From Knoellia sp. p5-6-4 (GTDB lineage Bacteria > Actinomycetota > Actinomycetes > Actinomycetales > Dermatophilaceae), in contig NZ_JARGZF010000001.1 in assembly GCF_029222705.1 (NCBI RefSeq), positions 182,437-246,436 on the forward strand: 64,000 nt of DNA, given 5' to 3'. Both the position numbers and the translations under genes were made by a program. Positions 57,181 to 63,011 of this stretch are shown here, in pieces (the stretch's first letter is position 1; each line of letters opens with the position of its first letter). The notes under the pieces are model-generated. The model was not told the DNA's origin. It made no database searches and worked only from the letters and a program-made list of their open reading frames with translations.

Positions 57181-58416
57181 TCAGGCTCCCTGCGGCTCGA
57201 AGACGGCGAGGCACTCGACGTGGTGGGTCATGGGGAAGGCGTCGAAGGCGCGCAGCGCGCGCAGGCCGTAACCGGCCTCCTTCAGGTATGCCGTGTCGCG
57301 GGCGAGCGCGGCCGGGTCACAGGCCACGTAGGCGACGACCCTCGGGCCCAGGCTCGCGACCTGCTGCGCGACCTGTCGGCCAGCGCCGGTGCGCGGTGGG
57401 TCGAGCACCACGAGATCAGCGCGAATTCCCTGTCGCACCAGTGGCTTCAGCACCTTGTCCACCCGCCCGGGTCGCAGCTCCACCCACGGGTGCGTCCGCG
57501 TGTTGCGGCGGGCGCTGGCCATCGCCGGCCCCTCCGCCTCGACGGCGAGCACCGCCCCGTCCGGCCCGACCGCGTCGGCGAGGGCGAGCGCGAAGAGCCC
57601 CACGCCGGCATACAGGTCGACCGCGCGCTCACCCTGTCGCGGACCCAGCGCCTGGAGCACCGCGTCGACGAAGGTCGCCGCGGCACCGGGGTGCACCTGC
57701 CAGAACCCGCGCGAGCCGACCTCGAAGGTCGCCTCCCAGGCCCCCGCGCGGACCGACTCTCGGACCACCGGGGCGGTCTTCTCGCCGCTGGGCACCGGCA
57801 CCACCACGGCTTGCTCGGTGGTGCTGGGCGCGACGACGTCGACGGCCCGCTCACCCGGCCAGCTCCTGCCGAGGACTCCGGCCTCCCGCACGCGGTCGTG
57901 GGCGATGAGGCAGTCCTCGACGGTGAGGACGTCGTGGGAGCGGTGCCGGCGCAGGCCGGGTCGGCCCTCGGCGTCGACGGCGAACTCCACGCGCGTGCGC
58001 CAGCCGAGGCCGTGGCGGTCGCCCGGCACCGCCTCGACCTCGATGTCGACGTCCAGCCCCGCCAGGCGGGCGAACTGCTCGCGCACCACGCTCGCCTTCA
58101 GGTGCCGCTGCTCGCTCAGCTCGACGTGCTGGAAGTCGCAACCACCGCACAGCCCGGGACCGGCATACGGGCAGGGCGCGGCGACCCGGTGCGGGCTGGC
58201 CTCGAGGACGTCCACGGCATCGGCGCGCACGAACCGCTGGCCGGGCCTGGCCTCGGTGATGCGTACCCGGACCCGCTCCCCGGGCAGCGTGTGGCGCACG
58301 AACACGACGCGCCCCTCGTGCCGGGCGACGCAGTGGCCGCCGTGGGCCACCGGTCCCACGACCACCTCGACCTCGTCGCCGGTGGCCAGCTCGCCGAGGT
58401 CCGGGGCGTCGGTCAT
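57181..58416 (-). CDS. TrmA/RlmD-family RNA uracil-C5 methyltransferase
   Basis: 411 residues. An N-terminal TRAM domain (VEVVVGPVAHGGHCVARHEGRVV) precedes cysteines C82-C91-C94 region (CPYAGPGLCGGCDFQH) and C163-type CLIAHDR that form an iron-sulphur site. The Rossmann methyltransferase has VDLYAGVGLFALALA (SAM loop), VVLDPPRTG and the catalytic cysteine in YVACDPAALARDTAY. These methylate a uridine at C5 in 23S rRNA or tRNA; the target cannot be told. ATGA overlap with the upstream permease gene fixes the start. Confidence 0.87.
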   Translation of the reverse strand: MTDAPDLGELATGDEVEVVVGPVAHGGHCVARHEGRVVFVRHTLPGERVRVRITEARPGQRFVRADAVDVLEASPHRVAAPCPYAGPGLCGGCDFQHVELSEQRHLKASVVREQFARLAGLDVDIEVEAVPGDRHGLGWRTRVEFAVDAEGRPGLRRHRSHDVLTVEDCLIAHDRVREAGVLGRSWPGERAVDVVAPSTTEQAVVVPVPSGEKTAPVVRESVRAGAWEATFEVGSRGFWQVHPGAAATFVDAVLQALGPRQGERAVDLYAGVGLFALALADAVGPDGAVLAVEAEGPAMASARRNTRTHPWVELRPGRVDKVLKPLVRQGIRADLVVLDPPRTGAGRQVAQQVASLGPRVVAYVACDPAALARDTAYLKEAGYGLRALRAFDAFPMTHHVECLAVFEPQGA

Positions 58417-60419
58417 TCGCCGCGCCGCACGGCGCCGACCGAAGGACCGTCGAGCCGCTCCTCCTGGCCCTCCGAGGAGGCGAGCTGCCACGGCACGCTC
58501 GCGACCATCACGCCCGGGGTGAACAGCAGTCGTGACTTCAGCCGCAGGGCGCTCTGGTTGTGCAGCACCTGCTCGTACCAGCGGCCGAGGACGTACTCCG
58601 GGATGTAGACCACGACGACGTCGCGCGGGTTGCCGCTGCGGATGGACTTCACGTAGTCGACGACCGGCCGGGTGATCTCCCGGAAGGGCGAGTCGAGCGC
58701 CTTGAGGGGGACGGGCAGGTCGCGACGGTCCCACTCCTGCTGCAGCGCCTTGGTCTCCTCCGTGTCGACGTTGACCGTGATGGCTTCGAGCACCGAGGGC
58801 CGGGTCGCCCTCGCGTAGGCCAGCGCGCGCAGCGTCGGCTTGTGGATCTTGGAGACCAGGACGATCGCGTGCACGCGCGAGGGCAGCCGCTGGTGGTCGA
58901 TGTCGCTCTCGGAGACAGCGAGCTCCTCGCGGACCCGGTCGTAGTGCCTGCGGATGCCGAGCATCAGGAAGAACAGCACGACCATGGCGGCGATCGCGTA
59001 GCCAGCGCCGTGCATGAACTTCGTGGCGAGGACGACCAGCAGCACGATGCCGGACATCGCCGCGCCGATGGCGTTGATGATGCGGCTGCGCTGCATCCGG
59101 GCCCGCGCGGCGGGGTCCCGCTCCAGGGGCAGGTGCCGGTTCCAGTGCCGGATCATGCCGGTCTGGCTGAGGGTGAAGGACACGAAGACGCCGACGATGT
59201 AGAGCTGGATCAGCTTCGTCACCTGGGCGTCGTAGAGGACGATGAGGAACGCCGCGGCGCCCGCCAGGATGATGATGCCGTTGGAGAAGGCGAGCCGGTC
59301 GCCGCGGGTGTGCAGCTGGCGGGGCAGCCAGCCGTCCCGCGCCAGGATCGACCCCAGCACCGGGAATCCGTTGAAGGCGGTGTTGGCCGCCAGGAAGAGG
59401 ATGAGCCCGGTCACGATGGAGACGAGGATGACTCCGGGGGTGAAGTCGTCGAAGACCGCATGGGCGACCTGGCCCATGATGGTCTCCTGGACGTAGTCCT
59501 CCCCCACCGGCTGGCCGTTGCGCCTCAGCTGCTCGGCCGGGTTCTCGGCGTACTTCACGCCGGTCCACGTGGCGAGCGCGATCATCGACAGGAGCATCGT
59601 GACGGCGATGGTTCCCATCAGCAGCAGGGTCGTGGCGGCGTTCCTGCTCTTGGGCTTCTCGAAGGCGGGGACACCGTTCGAGATCGCCTCCACGCCGGTG
59701 AGCGCCGCGCAGCCCGAGGAGAACGCGCGGAGCATGAGGAAACCCATCGCGAGCGCGCTCATGGCGGCGTGCTCCGGGTCGGCCACGAGCTCGAGCGAGG
59801 CGCTCTCCGCCTGGGGCAGCGTGCCCGTGAAGTGCCTGACCATCCCGACGGCGGCCATGCCGAGGACGCTGACCATGAACAGGTAGGTCGGGGCGGCGAA
59901 GGCGGCACCACTCTCCTTGACACCGCGCAGGTTGATCGTGGTCAGCAGCACCACGAGCCCGACCGCCACGAGCGCCTCGTGGCCCCGCACGAAGGGCAGC
60001 GCCGCAGCGGCGTTCTGCACACCGGAGGAGATCGACACGGCGACGGTCAGCACGTAGTCGACCAGCAGGGCGCTGGCGACGGTGAGGCCCGCCCTCGGGC
60101 CGAGGTTCACGGTGGCCACCTCGTAGTCACCACCACCGGAGGGGTAGGCGTGCACGTTCTGGCGGTACGACGCGACGACCACCAGCATGACCGCCACGAC
60201 GCCGAGCGCGATCTCCCAGGAGTGCGTCAGCGCCAGGGCACCACCGGCCAGACCGAGGGTCAGGAAGATCTCGTCCGGTGCGTAGGCCACCGACGACAGG
60301 GCGTCGCTCGCGAACACGGGGAGGGCGAGCTTCTTCGGGAGGAGCGTCTCCCCCAGCCGGTTGCTCTGCATGGCACGACCGACGAGGAGGCGCTTGACGA
60401 GGCGTCCAGAAGTTGGCAC
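58413..60419 (-). CDS. KimA-like APC-family potassium importer
   Basis: 668 residues. The first 470 residues hold twelve hydrophobic segments and closely follow the KimA (YdaO) pattern: LPKKLALPVFASDALSSVAY, SYRQNVHAYPSGGGDYEVA, ASALLVDYVLTVAVSIS, FSSGCAALTGVEAISNGVPAF, LAANTAFNGFPVLGS and RGDRLAFSNGIIILA. The last 170 residues are a soluble C-terminal domain resembling universal stress proteins. KimA brings in potassium with proton in Gram-positives. The gene is divergent from two trkA-like RCK genes; the ATG is the first in frame. Confidence 0.8.
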   Translation of the reverse strand: MPTSGRLVKRLLVGRAMQSNRLGETLLPKKLALPVFASDALSSVAYAPDEIFLTLGLAGGALALTHSWEIALGVVAVMLVVVASYRQNVHAYPSGGGDYEVATVNLGPRAGLTVASALLVDYVLTVAVSISSGVQNAAAALPFVRGHEALVAVGLVVLLTTINLRGVKESGAAFAAPTYLFMVSVLGMAAVGMVRHFTGTLPQAESASLELVADPEHAAMSALAMGFLMLRAFSSGCAALTGVEAISNGVPAFEKPKSRNAATTLLLMGTIAVTMLLSMIALATWTGVKYAENPAEQLRRNGQPVGEDYVQETIMGQVAHAVFDDFTPGVILVSIVTGLILFLAANTAFNGFPVLGSILARDGWLPRQLHTRGDRLAFSNGIIILAGAAAFLIVLYDAQVTKLIQLYIVGVFVSFTLSQTGMIRHWNRHLPLERDPAARARMQRSRIINAIGAAMSGIVLLVVLATKFMHGAGYAIAAMVVLFFLMLGIRRHYDRVREELAVSESDIDHQRLPSRVHAIVLVSKIHKPTLRALAYARATRPSVLEAITVNVDTEETKALQQEWDRRDLPVPLKALDSPFREITRPVVDYVKSIRSGNPRDVVVVYIPEYVLGRWYEQVLHNQSALRLKSRLLFTPGVMVASVPWQLASSEGQEERLDGPSVGAVRRGE

Positions 60420-60475
60420 GCAGACACTCTAGGCCGCCGCCGCATGGGCTTGCGCATCCGTAGGCCCGCACCGTG

Positions 60476-60481
60476 TAGCGT
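60476..60481 (+). promoter_or_regulatory. -10 element, probable leaderless trkA promoter
   Basis: TAGCGT is followed by seven bases and the GTG at 60489, without a ribosome-binding site. Confidence 0.5.
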
Positions 60482-60488
60482 CGCTGTC

Positions 60489-61157
60489 GTGCATTTCGTG
60501 ATCATGGGCTGTGGCCGTGTGGGCTCCACGCTCGCCCGCAGCCTCGAGCGTCAGGGACACGACGTCGCAGTGGTCGACCAGGACGAGTCCGCGTTCCGCA
60601 GGCTGGGCTCCAGCTTCGAGGGCCGGCGCGTCACCGGGGTCGGCTTCGACCGCGACACGCTGATCGACGCCGGCATCCAGCAGGCCTACGCCTTCGCGGC
60701 GGTCTCGAGCGGTGACAACTCCAACATCCTCGCGGCTCGTGTGGCCCGCGAGACCTTCGGGGTCGAGCACGTGGTCGCCCGCATCTACGACCCCGGCCGT
60801 GCCGAGGTCTACCAGCGCCTCGGCATCCCCACGGTGGCCACCGTGAAGTGGACGGCCGACCAGATGCTGCGCCGGCTCCTCCCCCAGGGCCACGTCCCCG
60901 AGTTCACCGACCCGTCGGGCAAGGTCGTCCTCGCCGAGGTCCCCGTCAACCCGGGCTGGGTCGGGCGCCGGATCACCGACCTCGAGGGCGCCAGTGGTGG
61001 CCGCGTGGCCTTCCTGACCCGCCTCGGCTCCGGCATGCTCCCCGGCGCCGACACCGTCTACCAGGAGGGCGACCTGCTCCACATCGCCACCCTCGCCGGG
61101 GAGCTGCCCGTGGTCGAGCGCGTGCTCGACTCCGCTCCCCAGCCGGCCGAGGCCTGA
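60489..61157 (+). CDS. trkA: TrkA/CeoB-like potassium-uptake regulator (RCK)
   Basis: 222 residues. Residues 1-125 form an RCK_N domain (VIMGCGRVGSTLARSLER, AVVDQDESAFRRL, QQAYAFAAVSSGDNSNILAARVA); residues about 145-215 an RCK_C domain (LAEVPVNPGWVGRRITDLEG). RCK proteins gate potassium transporters in response to nucleotides (NAD/ATP, and in some Gram-positives c-di-AMP via RCK_C). It is followed 17 bp later by a second RCK protein, as in mycobacterial ceoB-ceoC. Confidence 0.9.
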   Translation: MHFVIMGCGRVGSTLARSLERQGHDVAVVDQDESAFRRLGSSFEGRRVTGVGFDRDTLIDAGIQQAYAFAAVSSGDNSNILAARVARETFGVEHVVARIYDPGRAEVYQRLGIPTVATVKWTADQMLRRLLPQGHVPEFTDPSGKVVLAEVPVNPGWVGRRITDLEGASGGRVAFLTRLGSGMLPGADTVYQEGDLLHIATLAGELPVVERVLDSAPQPAEA

Positions 61158-61174
61158 GGCAAGGAAGGACCCCC

Positions 61175-61858
61175 ATGCGAGTCGTCATCGCCGGAGCGGG
61201 CAGCGTCGGGCGCTCCATCGCGCGCGAGCTGATCCACAACGGCCACCAGGTGCTCCTCATGGACCGCGAGCGCAAGGACGTGCAGGCCAGCCGGGTGCCG
61301 GAGGCCAACTGGCTGCTGGCCGACGCCTGCGAGATCGCCGCCCTGCACGAGGCCGGCCTCGCCGACTGTGACACGGTCGTCGCCGCCACCGGCGACGACA
61401 AGGTCAACCTCGTGGTGTCGCTGCTGGCCAAGACCGAGTTCGGGGTGCCGCGCACCGTGGCCCGCGTCAACAACCCCAAGAACGAGTGGATGTTCGACGA
61501 GGCCTGGGGCGTCGACGTCGCCGTCTCCACCCCGCGGCTGATGACGGCCCTCGTGGAGGAGGCCGTCAGCATCGGCGACCTCGTGCGCATCTTCCAGTTC
61601 CAGCAGGGCCGGGCGACGATGGTCGAGCTCACGCTGCCCGCCGACAGCCCGTATGCCGGCAAGCGCGTCGGCGACATCACCTTCCCCGGTGAGACGGTGC
61701 TGGTGGGCATCATCCGCGAGGACCACCCGATCGCCCCGTCGCGCGACGACTCCCTCGAGCCCCACGACGAGCTGCTGTTCATCACCACGCCGGAGTTCGA
61801 GGACTCCCTCGAGGCGATGCTCAGCCCCGGAGACCGCCACCCGCGCGAACGCGACTGA
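61175..61858 (+). CDS. TrkA/CeoC-like potassium-uptake regulator (RCK)
   Basis: 227 residues with the same two-domain layout as its neighbour: NAD-binding RVVIAGAGSVGRSIARELIH, ADACEIAALHEAGLADCDTVV and ATGDDKVNLVVSLLAKTEFG, then an RCK_C domain (ELTLPADSPYAGKRVGDITF, VGIIREDHPIAPSRD, DELLFITTPEFED). It probably forms heteromers with the first TrkA. AAGGAAGG lies 6 bases before ATG 61175. Convergent with the DUF3159 gene (12 bp apart). Confidence 0.9.
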   Translation: MRVVIAGAGSVGRSIARELIHNGHQVLLMDRERKDVQASRVPEANWLLADACEIAALHEAGLADCDTVVAATGDDKVNLVVSLLAKTEFGVPRTVARVNNPKNEWMFDEAWGVDVAVSTPRLMTALVEEAVSIGDLVRIFQFQQGRATMVELTLPADSPYAGKRVGDITFPGETVLVGIIREDHPIAPSRDDSLEPHDELLFITTPEFEDSLEAMLSPGDRHPRERD

Positions 61859-61870
61859 GGGCCGGGCCGG

Positions 61871-62602
61871 TCACGGCCTGGGTTCGCCGCCGGCGTGGTG
61901 CGCGGCCTGCCAGGTCTGCTCGCTGTCGGGCGCCGGCACCACCTGCGGGGTCTGGCCGCGCAGGAGCATCCAGCCCATGACAGCGACCGCGACCACCCAG
62001 GCCGGCCACCCGAGCGCCACCTTGGCGACCCCCAGCCAGGCGACCTGCCCGGCGAAGTAGAGCGGGAGCATGATCGCCACCCGCACGGCATACAGGGCCA
62101 CCAGCACCATCGTGAGCCGCTGGCACACCCGCACCAGACCGGGGTCGCGTCGCCACGCGAACGGGTCCTCGGCCATCCGCGGGTCACCCACGCCCACCAT
62201 GAACCCGACCACGGGCCAGCGCACGAGCACCGAGACCAGCGTCCCCACGCCCCACGCGGCGCTGGTGAGGATCCCGGGCAGGAAGGCGTCCTCGGCGCGC
62301 CCGCTGCGCAGCGCGAAGAACGCCGCGATGGCGGTGGCGAACACCGCGGAGAGGATGAACTGAAGGCTCTGCCGCTGGACCACGGCCACGACCGCGAGGA
62401 CCGCCGTCAGCACGCCGGCGGTGACCACCGCGGTCATGATGTCCTTCTGCCACGTCCACACGACGACGAACGCCACCATGGGCAGCGCCGACTCGATGGA
62501 TCCGCGCCATCCGCCGAGCGCTGTCGAGAGCCGGTGGCGGATGACCTCCTCGACCGTCGGCGCCGGGTGGGTCGCCGCGACGGGCTCCTGCTCAGTGGCC
62601 AC
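61871..62602 (-). CDS. DUF3159 family membrane protein
   Basis: 243 residues with five to six membrane helices (SALPMVAFVVVWTWQKDIMTAV, VLTAVLAVVAVV, ILSAVFATAIAAFFAL, ILTSAAWGVGTLVSVLV, RLTMVLVALYAVRVAIMLPL, WVVAVAVMGWMLLRG) in the DUF3159 pattern, with GGWRGSIESALP before helix one and GDPRMAEDPFAWRRDPGLVRVCQ in the loop. Actinobacterial family of unknown function encoded beside trkA and the OB-fold gene. Overlaps the OB-fold gene by 11 bp, suggesting a single transcript. Confidence 0.87.
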   Translation of the reverse strand: MATEQEPVAATHPAPTVEEVIRHRLSTALGGWRGSIESALPMVAFVVVWTWQKDIMTAVVTAGVLTAVLAVVAVVQRQSLQFILSAVFATAIAAFFALRSGRAEDAFLPGILTSAAWGVGTLVSVLVRWPVVGFMVGVGDPRMAEDPFAWRRDPGLVRVCQRLTMVLVALYAVRVAIMLPLYFAGQVAWLGVAKVALGWPAWVVAVAVMGWMLLRGQTPQVVPAPDSEQTWQAAHHAGGEPRP

Positions 62603-63011
62603 GGGACGGCACGATCTCGTAGGCGGGGTTGAAGATGGTCGGCATTCCTCTCAGGTACGTGACCCGTCCGGTCGCGCGCAGGTAGGTGCCCGGCTCGATG
62701 CCACCGATCGTGCGACGCCCGAGCCAGATGAGGTTGATGGTCCGGCTGCCGTCGTAGAGGTCGACGACGAGGGCCGGCACGTTGACCCGCGGGCGCAGCG
62801 TCACGGCCCGCACGGTGCCGGTCACGGTCGCGACCTGGCGGTCCTTGAGGTCGGACATCCGGGTGGCGCCGTGCCGGGCCGTGTCCTCCTGCAGCTCGGC
62901 GGCCTCGATCTGCTGGGCCGTCCTCGTCAGCCGCTCACCGAGCCGCCCGAGGAGCGAGCGGTGGTGGCCGTCCGCTGTGCTGGTGCCCGAGGATGCAGGG
63001 GTTGCCGCCAT
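62592..63011 (-). CDS. OB-fold nucleic-acid-binding domain protein
   Basis: 139 residues. A helix (LLGRLGERLTRTAQQIEAAELQED) precedes an OB-fold: QVATVTGTVRAVTLRPR, VPALVVDLYDGSRTINLIWLG, GTYLRATGRVTYLRGM and a final FNPAYEIVP. The arrangement is the tRNA_anti-like OB of actinobacterial proteins located between DUF3159 and DUF3710. Likely binds nucleic acid; partners unknown. The start at ATG 63011 lies 9 bp downstream of the DUF3710 stop. Confidence 0.85.
   Translation of the reverse strand: MAATPASSGTSTADGHHRSLLGRLGERLTRTAQQIEAAELQEDTARHGATRMSDLKDRQVATVTGTVRAVTLRPRVNVPALVVDLYDGSRTINLIWLGRRTIGGIEPGTYLRATGRVTYLRGMPTIFNPAYEIVPSRGH

What the first reader, a model, noticed from the sequence alone, without database searches (positions are those of the whole stretch)
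58413..61858. KimA-like transporter facing two RCK proteins: a compact potassium module
A KimA/YdaO-type importer with an extra soluble C-terminal domain is divergent from two TrkA/Ceo-like RCK proteins, and no Trk membrane subunit is present in the window. The RCK pair may gate the KimA-like protein directly, which would differ from both KtrAB and classical Trk. In some Gram-positives RCK_C domains and KimA both respond to c-di-AMP.
Basis: partly seen in the sequence, partly recalled or inferred. Interest (0 to 1): 0.52.

Follow-up and report, generated by a model that had tools for sequence, protein, structure and literature searches.

The report
Potassium importer paired with RCK ring
A potassium importer of the KimA family sits next to, and in some relatives in one operon with, two ring-forming regulator genes that normally control a different class of potassium transporter, which suggests a regulated uptake system that could explain the missing membrane part of the mycobacterial "Trk" system.

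Summary
A 668-aa KimA (58413-60419, -) faces two RCK genes (60489-61157, 61175-61858, +). Its soluble C-terminal domain is not extra but the normal KimA domain. Ten ion-pathway residues checked are identical in 41 of 41 family members; the c-di-AMP pocket is nearly so. The RCK pair is of the two-subunit TrkA ring type. The genome has no TrkH/KtrB, KdpA or Kup match and one KimA.

RCK2 occurs in 143 of 148 class genomes; 100 of these lack TrkH and 97 of the 100 have a KimA. KimA and RCK2 are adjacent in 110 of 143. Outside the class KimA stays near in 36 of 38 judgeable loci, with eight KimA-RCK1-RCK2 operons. TrkH loci have their own RCK in 18 of 20.

Against: KimA is missing in 10 of 143, seven of them with TrkH; another neighbour is linked in 33 of 38; RCK pairs also stand beside other pumps. 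Gating of KimA by the ring is inferred, not shown. c-di-AMP probably acts on KimA, not on these RCKs. New variant of a known kind.

The parts
58413..60419 (-). kimA-like K+/H+ symporter gene, 668 aa, KimA subfamily of KUP
   Evidence: phmmer to B. subtilis KimA 6s3k E 9.6e-111, residues 8-645; AA_permease_2 E 5.2e-29
58920..60398 (-). membrane domain of KimA (about residues 8-500); window residues D39 Y46 D121 T125 T241 E244 Y407 of the K+/H+ pathway
   Evidence: mapped by hand on the alignment to KimA D36 Y43 D117 T121 T230 E233 Y377 (named in PMC6994465); each 41 of 41
58485..58868 (-). cytosolic C-terminal domain of KimA (about residues 518-645), predicted c-di-AMP site
   Evidence: H620 N621 Q622 41 of 41, S623 34 of 41; R367, in the membrane domain, 40 of 41; pocket residues named in PMC10284832
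60420..60488 (.). 69-bp divergent intergenic region between kimA and RCK1
   Evidence: no Rfam match at gathering score here, so no ydaO riboswitch
60489..61157 (+). RCK1 (CeoB / TM1088A type), RCK_N + RCK_C, GCGRVG nucleotide motif
   Evidence: model mean pLDDT 92.5, best PDB match 3l4b; profile scores TM1088A 112.8 over TM1088B 79.5 bits
61175..61858 (+). RCK2 (CeoC / TM1088B type), RCK_N + RCK_C, GAGSVG motif
   Evidence: profile scores TM1088B 104.5 over TM1088A 59.7 bits

Best explanation
A potassium uptake system whose membrane part is a KimA-type K+/H+ symporter and whose cytosolic regulator is a two-subunit RCK ring. Shown by sequence: KimA homology, kept K+, proton-coupling and c-di-AMP residues, two RCK proteins of the TM1088A/B (CeoB/CeoC) type, long-lasting linkage and operons. 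Inferred: RCK1 and RCK2 form a hetero-octameric ring that docks on the KimA dimer and raises or lowers its activity according to adenine nucleotide or NAD(H) binding, while c-di-AMP shuts the same transporter through its own C-terminal domain. In genomes without TrkH, as here, this would be the 'Trk' of these actinobacteria.
For: Ion-pathway residues 41 of 41, c-di-AMP pocket nearly so. Own genome: 0 TrkH, 0 KdpA, 0 Kup PF02705, 1 KimA, 1 diadenylate cyclase domain. Class set of 148: RCK2 143, KimA 134, TrkH 47; 97 of 100 RCK2-bearing TrkH-less genomes have KimA. Adjacent and divergent in 110 of 143. Outside the class 36 of 38 judgeable loci keep KimA (one of them, L212, only pieces) while TRAM stays in 0, DUF3159 in 1, DUF3710 in 0 of 38. 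KimA is on the same strand yet adjacent in 11 of 66; 8 of 11 same-strand loci examined have the KimA stop 8-61 bp before the RCK1 match. An RCK gene lies beside TrkH in 18 of 20 TrkH loci. Outside genetics in M. tuberculosis: ceoB and the adjacent Rv2690c went the same way in one transposon screen (PMC12216072, passages and section 13) and both stand in a table of regions enriched for variants (PMC13308281, preprint, table passages).
Against: No interaction or transport was measured. In the passages I read, B. subtilis KimA takes up K+ in E. coli without mention of an RCK partner (PMC6994465). Ten of 143 RCK2-bearing genomes lack KimA; in 15 more the best KimA is distant (E above 1e-100). The gene called OB-fold here is linked in 33 of 38 loci, so linkage is not specific. 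RCK pairs also sit beside P-type cation ATPases (L103, L113, L031) and an H+-pyrophosphatase (L101). Eight of 66 phylum-set places were not adjacent to a listed KimA (one of them, L102, does show a KimA). The tree-similarity test did not discriminate.
Confidence: 0.55

Rival explanations
1. The RCK ring is a portable regulator with several clients. It serves KimA in most genomes but also other cation or proton pumps; KimA is one client, not the dedicated partner.
For: An RCK1-RCK2 pair beside P-type cation ATPases in L103, L113, L031, downstream of an H+-pyrophosphatase in L101; an RCK2 paralogue divergent from a Na+/H+ exchanger with its own TrkA_C in L114 and L115; RCK2 kept without KimA in 10 of 143.
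Against: Rare against 110 of 143 and 36 of 38 KimA-linked loci; the six genomes concerned (G102, G023, G457, G146, G074, G150) also have a KimA, and four of the six loci are second copies.
Confidence: 0.25
2. KimA and the RCK pair are independent K+ genes that merely share an old chromosomal block and a divergent promoter region; the ring has no effect on KimA activity.
For: In the class the block also holds TRAM methyltransferase, DUF3159 and other genes with no evident K+ role; the OB-fold gene stays in 33 of 38 loci outside the class; KimA has its own predicted c-di-AMP control.
Against: Outside the class TRAM stays in 0, DUF3159 in 1, DUF3710 in 0 of 38, KimA in 36; orientation changes and operons appear; ceoB and Rv2690c come up together in PMC12216072 and PMC13308281.
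Confidence: 0.13
3. The RCK pair is an ordinary TrkA half-system and works with a TrkH/KtrB coded elsewhere; KimA is a bystander.
For: NCBIfam matches are all TrkA models; 7 of 10 KimA-less RCK2-bearing genomes have TrkH, against 36 of 133 KimA-bearing ones; TM1088A/B of Thermotoga works with TrkH TM1089 (PMC4380455 passages).
Against: No TrkH in the window's genome or in 100 of 143 RCK2-bearing genomes; an RCK gene lies beside TrkH in 18 of 20 loci.
Confidence: 0.05

Closest known systems
KimA (YdaO) of Bacillus subtilis, KUP-family K+/H+ symporter, PDB 6s3k, 8b70
   Same: Nearly whole-length homology, all K+/H+ residues named in PMC6994465, most of the c-di-AMP pocket
   Different: P479 of the pocket is Leu in 41 of 41, W592 is Phe (40) or Tyr (1), R587 is Lys in 40 of 41; no RCK partner is known for it (recalled); no riboswitch in the window
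TM1088A/TM1088B two-subunit TrkA gating ring of Thermotoga maritima (PDB 3l4b)
   Same: Two short RCK proteins from neighbouring genes that overlap by 1 or 4 bases in 25 of 40 loci here; of the two chains RCK1 scores better to A, RCK2 to B
   Different: Partner there is TrkH (TM1089, PMC4380455 passages); here no TrkH and a KimA neighbour; the TM1088A chain is 143 aa and is matched by RCK1 only over residues 2-118
CeoB/CeoC 'Trk' of Mycobacterium tuberculosis with the adjacent Rv2690c
   Same: Two TrkA proteins (PMC13163235, PMC4553272 passages) with an adjacent membrane-protein gene (PMC12216072; named so in PMC8805019, PMC10534295)
   Different: In the passages I saw no membrane subunit of that Trk is named and Rv2690c is not called KimA; that it is one is my inference from gene order, partly recalled
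KtrAB / TrkAH
   Same: RCK protein plus membrane K+ transporter
   Different: Membrane subunit there is TrkH/KtrB; here a KUP-family (LeuT-fold) protein
CpeAB / KhtTU antiporters with c-di-AMP-binding RCK_C
   Same: RCK_C protein next to a K+ transporter, CpeAB in actinobacteria (PMC10117811 passages)
   Different: c-di-AMP signature found in 0 of 41 RCK1 and 0 of 41 RCK2; importer, not antiporter

Membership tests
KimA (KUP family) | Sequence homology over membrane and cytosolic domain | tested here: met
   E 9.6e-111, residues 8-645 of 668
KimA (KUP family) | K+ site and proton-coupling residues D36 Y43 T121 T230 E233 Y377 | tested here: met
   41 of 41 each
KimA (KUP family) | c-di-AMP pocket R337 V457 L461 P479 V506 H579 N580 Q581 S582 | tested here: met
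   eight of nine identical in the window, P479 is Leu; binding itself untested
KimA (KUP family) | K+/H+ symport, homodimer, inhibition by c-di-AMP | not testable with these tools
   needs protein work
Trk/Ktr system | TrkH/KtrB membrane subunit | tested here: not met
   0 PF02386 matches in the genome
Trk/Ktr system | Cytosolic RCK protein(s) | tested here: met
   TrkA_N and TrkA_C
Two-subunit TrkA gating ring (TM1088A/B type) | Two adjacent genes of A and B type | tested here: met
   single-chain TrkA scores higher than either
Two-subunit TrkA gating ring (TM1088A/B type) | Hetero-octameric ring | not testable with these tools
   only a monomer model of RCK1
c-di-AMP-binding RCK_C proteins (KtrA, CpeA, KhtT) | Signature (I/L)(I/L)X2DX1RX5N(I/L)(I/L), as given in PMC10117811 | tested here: not met
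   0 of 41 RCK1, 0 of 41 RCK2

The most novel reading that the evidence does not exclude
An RCK gating ring acts on a LeuT-fold (KUP) secondary transporter: the actinobacterial 'Trk' (CeoBC) is really a KimA-CeoBC complex with two inputs, nucleotide state through the ring and c-di-AMP through the KimA C-terminal domain, and the same ring has been moved in evolution to P-type ATPases and other pumps.
Probability: 0.42. Interest if true: 0.78.

Novelty: new variant of a known kind. Interest (0 to 1): 0.58.

Why it matters
RCK rings are known partners of TrkH/KtrB, 2-TM channels and cation/proton antiporters (recalled; the PDB hits are TrkA, Ktr, GsuK, MthK, KefC); a KUP symporter as partner would be new. 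It would name the membrane part of the mycobacterial 'Trk' system: the passages I read describe it as two TrkA proteins (PMC4553272, PMC13163235), and PMC13163235 says that its triple mutant in Trk and Kdp appears to implicate alternative K+ uptake. Listings and passages in which I found no statement of a KimA-RCK or CeoB-Rv2690c complex: (open-licence PMC papers only; most hits seen as listing only). PMC12216072 comes nearest: it groups ceoB with the adjacent Rv2690c as genes of the Trk system.

Tried and rejected
Extra C-terminal domain: rejected, it is part of KimA. RCK pair as c-di-AMP sensor: signature absent. ydaO riboswitch in front of kimA: the only Rfam matches in the window are three tRNAs. 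TrkH as partner: rejected for the window's genome and unlikely in general. Apparent KimA loss in 10 of 80 named loci: three have only 325 to 1672 bp upstream in view; the other seven were sent to with 21 KimA-bearing ones, and all seven genomes have a KimA; in five its coordinates lie about 1-30 kb outside the stretch held (that the contig is the same is my inference). Tree-similarity test (82 loci): partial correlations KimA-RCK1 0.38 and KimA-RCK2 0.41, but KimA-DUF3159 0.40 and RCK1-TRAM 0.75 as well, so it does not discriminate and I give it no weight. KimA-TrkH replacement: TrkH in 7 of 10 KimA-less against 36 of 133 KimA-bearing RCK2 genomes, but four of the seven are one family, so not counted as proof. 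Fisher test RCK2 by KimA (133, 10, 1, 4), p 2.5e-4, ignores kinship.
Full report
What is there. The window (GC 0.65-0.74 in 4-kb steps; actinobacterial by its gene block and by the relatives found) carries kimA at 58413-60419 (-), RCK1 at 60489-61157 (+) and RCK2 at 61175-61858 (+). On the left is an RlmD-like TRAM methyltransferase gene (57181-58425, -), on the right a DUF3159 gene (61871-62602, -), then a short gene without a Pfam match that I call OB-fold from recall, and DUF3710. KimA aligns with the solved B. subtilis KimA over residues 8-645 of 668, E 9.6e-111, so the C-terminal soluble domain is not an addition.

Is KimA a working KimA? I mapped by hand the residues named in PMC6994465 and PMC10284832 (passages read) onto the alignment and counted them in 41 class members (alignment A1). 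D36, Y43, D117, Y118, T121, S125, T230, E233, N237 and Y377 are identical in 41 of 41. Of the c-di-AMP pocket, R337 is kept in 40, V457 in 39, L461 in 37, V506 in 39, H579, N580 and Q581 in 41, S582 in 34 of 41; P479 is Leu in all 41. All 41 come from loci chosen for having KimA next to the RCK pair. The genome has one diadenylate cyclase domain. So K+/H+ symport inhibited by c-di-AMP is the natural expectation; it was not measured.

What are the RCK proteins? Both match TrkA_N and TrkA_C. The AlphaFold model of RCK1 (mean pLDDT 92.5) matches best the two-subunit ring TM1088A:TM1088B of Thermotoga (TM-score 0.52, the two domains being set differently), then TrkA, GsuK and KtrA. Between the two Thermotoga chains the RCK1 profile prefers TM1088A (112.8 over 79.5 bits) and the RCK2 profile TM1088B (104.5 over 59.7); single-chain TrkA scores higher still. 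PMC4380455 (abstract and passages) says that a two-subunit TrkA homolog exists in M. tuberculosis. In 40 of 40 class loci fetched, KimA and RCK1 are divergent (gap 31-426 bp with starts picked by script), and RCK1 and RCK2 overlap by 1 or 4 bases in 25 of 40.

Who is the membrane partner? In the window's genome TrkH, KdpA and Kup (PF02705) have 0 matches; K+ channels were not searched. A third RCK protein (TrkA_N and TrkA_C) lies elsewhere. In the same 148 class genomes RCK2 is found in 143 (E 1e-10 or better), KimA in 134 (E 1e-20 or better), TrkH in 47 (E 1e-3 or better). From these tables: of 100 RCK2-bearing genomes without TrkH, 97 have KimA; the three others are G414, G397 (its contig ends inside RCK2) and G451 (76% complete). 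Of 43 RCK2-bearing genomes with TrkH, 36 have KimA. Of the 133 KimA-bearing ones, 118 have a close KimA and 15 only a distant one (best E above 1e-100; one of these, G404, has it at the locus). Of five genomes without RCK2 one has KimA, a copy 50% identical (G268).

Linkage. KimA and RCK2 are adjacent in 110 of 143, always divergent. Of 80 named loci found through RCK1, 70 show a divergent KimA, two of them weakly. Since a whole block of unrelated genes is conserved in the class, this alone proves little. Outside the class I looked at 49 loci (the non-class genomes among the 66 best RCK2 places of the phylum set); 11 are cut by contig ends, with KimA in view in 7 of them. In the 38 judgeable ones KimA is near in 36 (in L212 only pieces), RCK1 in 38, OB-fold in 33, TRAM in 0, DUF3159 in 1, DUF3710 in 0. 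In one search, 58 of 66 places are adjacent to a KimA, 47 divergent and 11 on the same strand. Of 11 same-strand loci examined (ten of those eleven, and L230), eight have the KimA stop 8-61 bp before the RCK1 match: a KimA-RCK1-RCK2 operon. Nine of the 49 loci show two KimA copies, and KimA with a doubled C-terminal domain is common there. The high OB-fold figure warns that linkage is not exclusive.

TrkH is served by others. In 20 TrkH loci fetched from 17 genomes, 18 have an RCK gene beside TrkH; in L033 and L040 none was found.

Ten of 143 RCK2-bearing genomes lack KimA: G307, G397, G411, G414, G451, G455, G477, G479, G485, G493; seven have TrkH. In eight of these (not G397 and G451, whose contigs end too early) TRAM, RCK1, RCK2 and DUF3159 stay together and KimA is absent between TRAM and RCK1. 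KimA is also gone from that place in G415, G417, G488, G496 and G426, which keep a distant KimA, and in the family-f85 loci L098-L100, whose genomes keep a close KimA elsewhere. So the pair is not strictly tied to an adjacent KimA. Yet in G307 RCK1 is frameshifted (a sequencing error cannot be excluded), and in family f89 RCK2 is 49, 45, 50 and 50% identical to the window's in the four KimA-less genomes (46% in G426, which has only a distant KimA) against 62, 65, 62, 62 and 62% in five KimA-bearing ones, as if the constraint had changed. G411 and G479 show no such drop (64 and 65%, family mates 64-67%); G414 has no family mate to compare. In 28 named genomes, nearly all Streptomyces or Kitasatospora, seven of them chosen for lacking KimA near RCK1, all 28 have KimA and 6 have TrkH.

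Other clients. An RCK1-RCK2 pair stands by a P-type cation ATPase in L103 (the genome's only RCK2 match), L113 and L031 (second copies), downstream of an H+-pyrophosphatase in L101, and an RCK2 paralogue faces a Na+/H+ exchanger with TrkA_C in L114 and L115. These six genomes also have a KimA. A portable ring is therefore a serious rival.

Literature. PMC12216072 (passages and section 13) reports ceoB and the adjacent Rv2690c together in a transposon screen; PMC13308281 (preprint, table passages) lists Rv2690c and ceoB among regions with an excess of variants, within-host by its title; PMC11878324 (passages) reports changes in rv2690c and ceoC in one late isolate. PMC10117811 (passages) lists Vnz_27465 as KimA-like (39%), finds no TrkH or KtrB in S. 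venezuelae, and reports that the RCK_C of Vnz_27460 does not bind c-di-AMP (unpublished data cited there). That Vnz_27460 and 27465 are neighbours is inferred from the tag numbers; that Rv2690c is a KimA and that ceoB and ceoC are Rv2691 and Rv2692 is recalled or inferred, since the M. tuberculosis locus was not found.

Verdict. Most likely a KimA importer with a dedicated or principal two-subunit RCK ring (0.55), new variant of a known kind. The functional link is well supported by context and outside genetics; physical gating is inference.

Noticed in passing
L104, L105, L108, L109, L110, L112, L116 and others: KimA proteins outside the class often carry a second, tandem copy of the cytosolic C-terminal domain, and nine of 49 loci hold two KimA genes near one RCK pair.
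   Followed up: partly
L103:4662-9119; L113:5001-9471; L031:7130-11330: RCK1-RCK2 pair beside a P-type cation ATPase, a possible second client of the ring.
   Followed up: partly
L101:4308-8054: H+-pyrophosphatase gene directly upstream of an RCK1-RCK2 pair without KimA nearby.
   Followed up: partly
L114:3762-6112; L115:3396-5769: A single RCK2 paralogue divergent from a Na+/H+ exchanger that has its own TrkA_C domain.
   Followed up: partly
window 62592-63005 (-): A short gene (called OB-fold here from recall, no Pfam match) stays near RCK2 in 33 of 38 loci outside the class, almost as faithfully as KimA; its role is unknown.
   Followed up: no
L096:1471-2139 (own genome, contig C1, near 1285307): A lone RCK protein (KtrA-like by eye) in a genome without any TrkH/KtrB match.
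   Followed up: no
L149, L160, L163, L164: In some Streptomyces other genes lie between RCK1 and the likely KimA (among the ORFs scanned a TrkA_N protein, PucR-type regulators, a DDE endonuclease).
   Followed up: partly
L013:5962-6700: RCK1 is frameshifted in the KimA-less, TrkH-bearing relative G307.
   Followed up: partly
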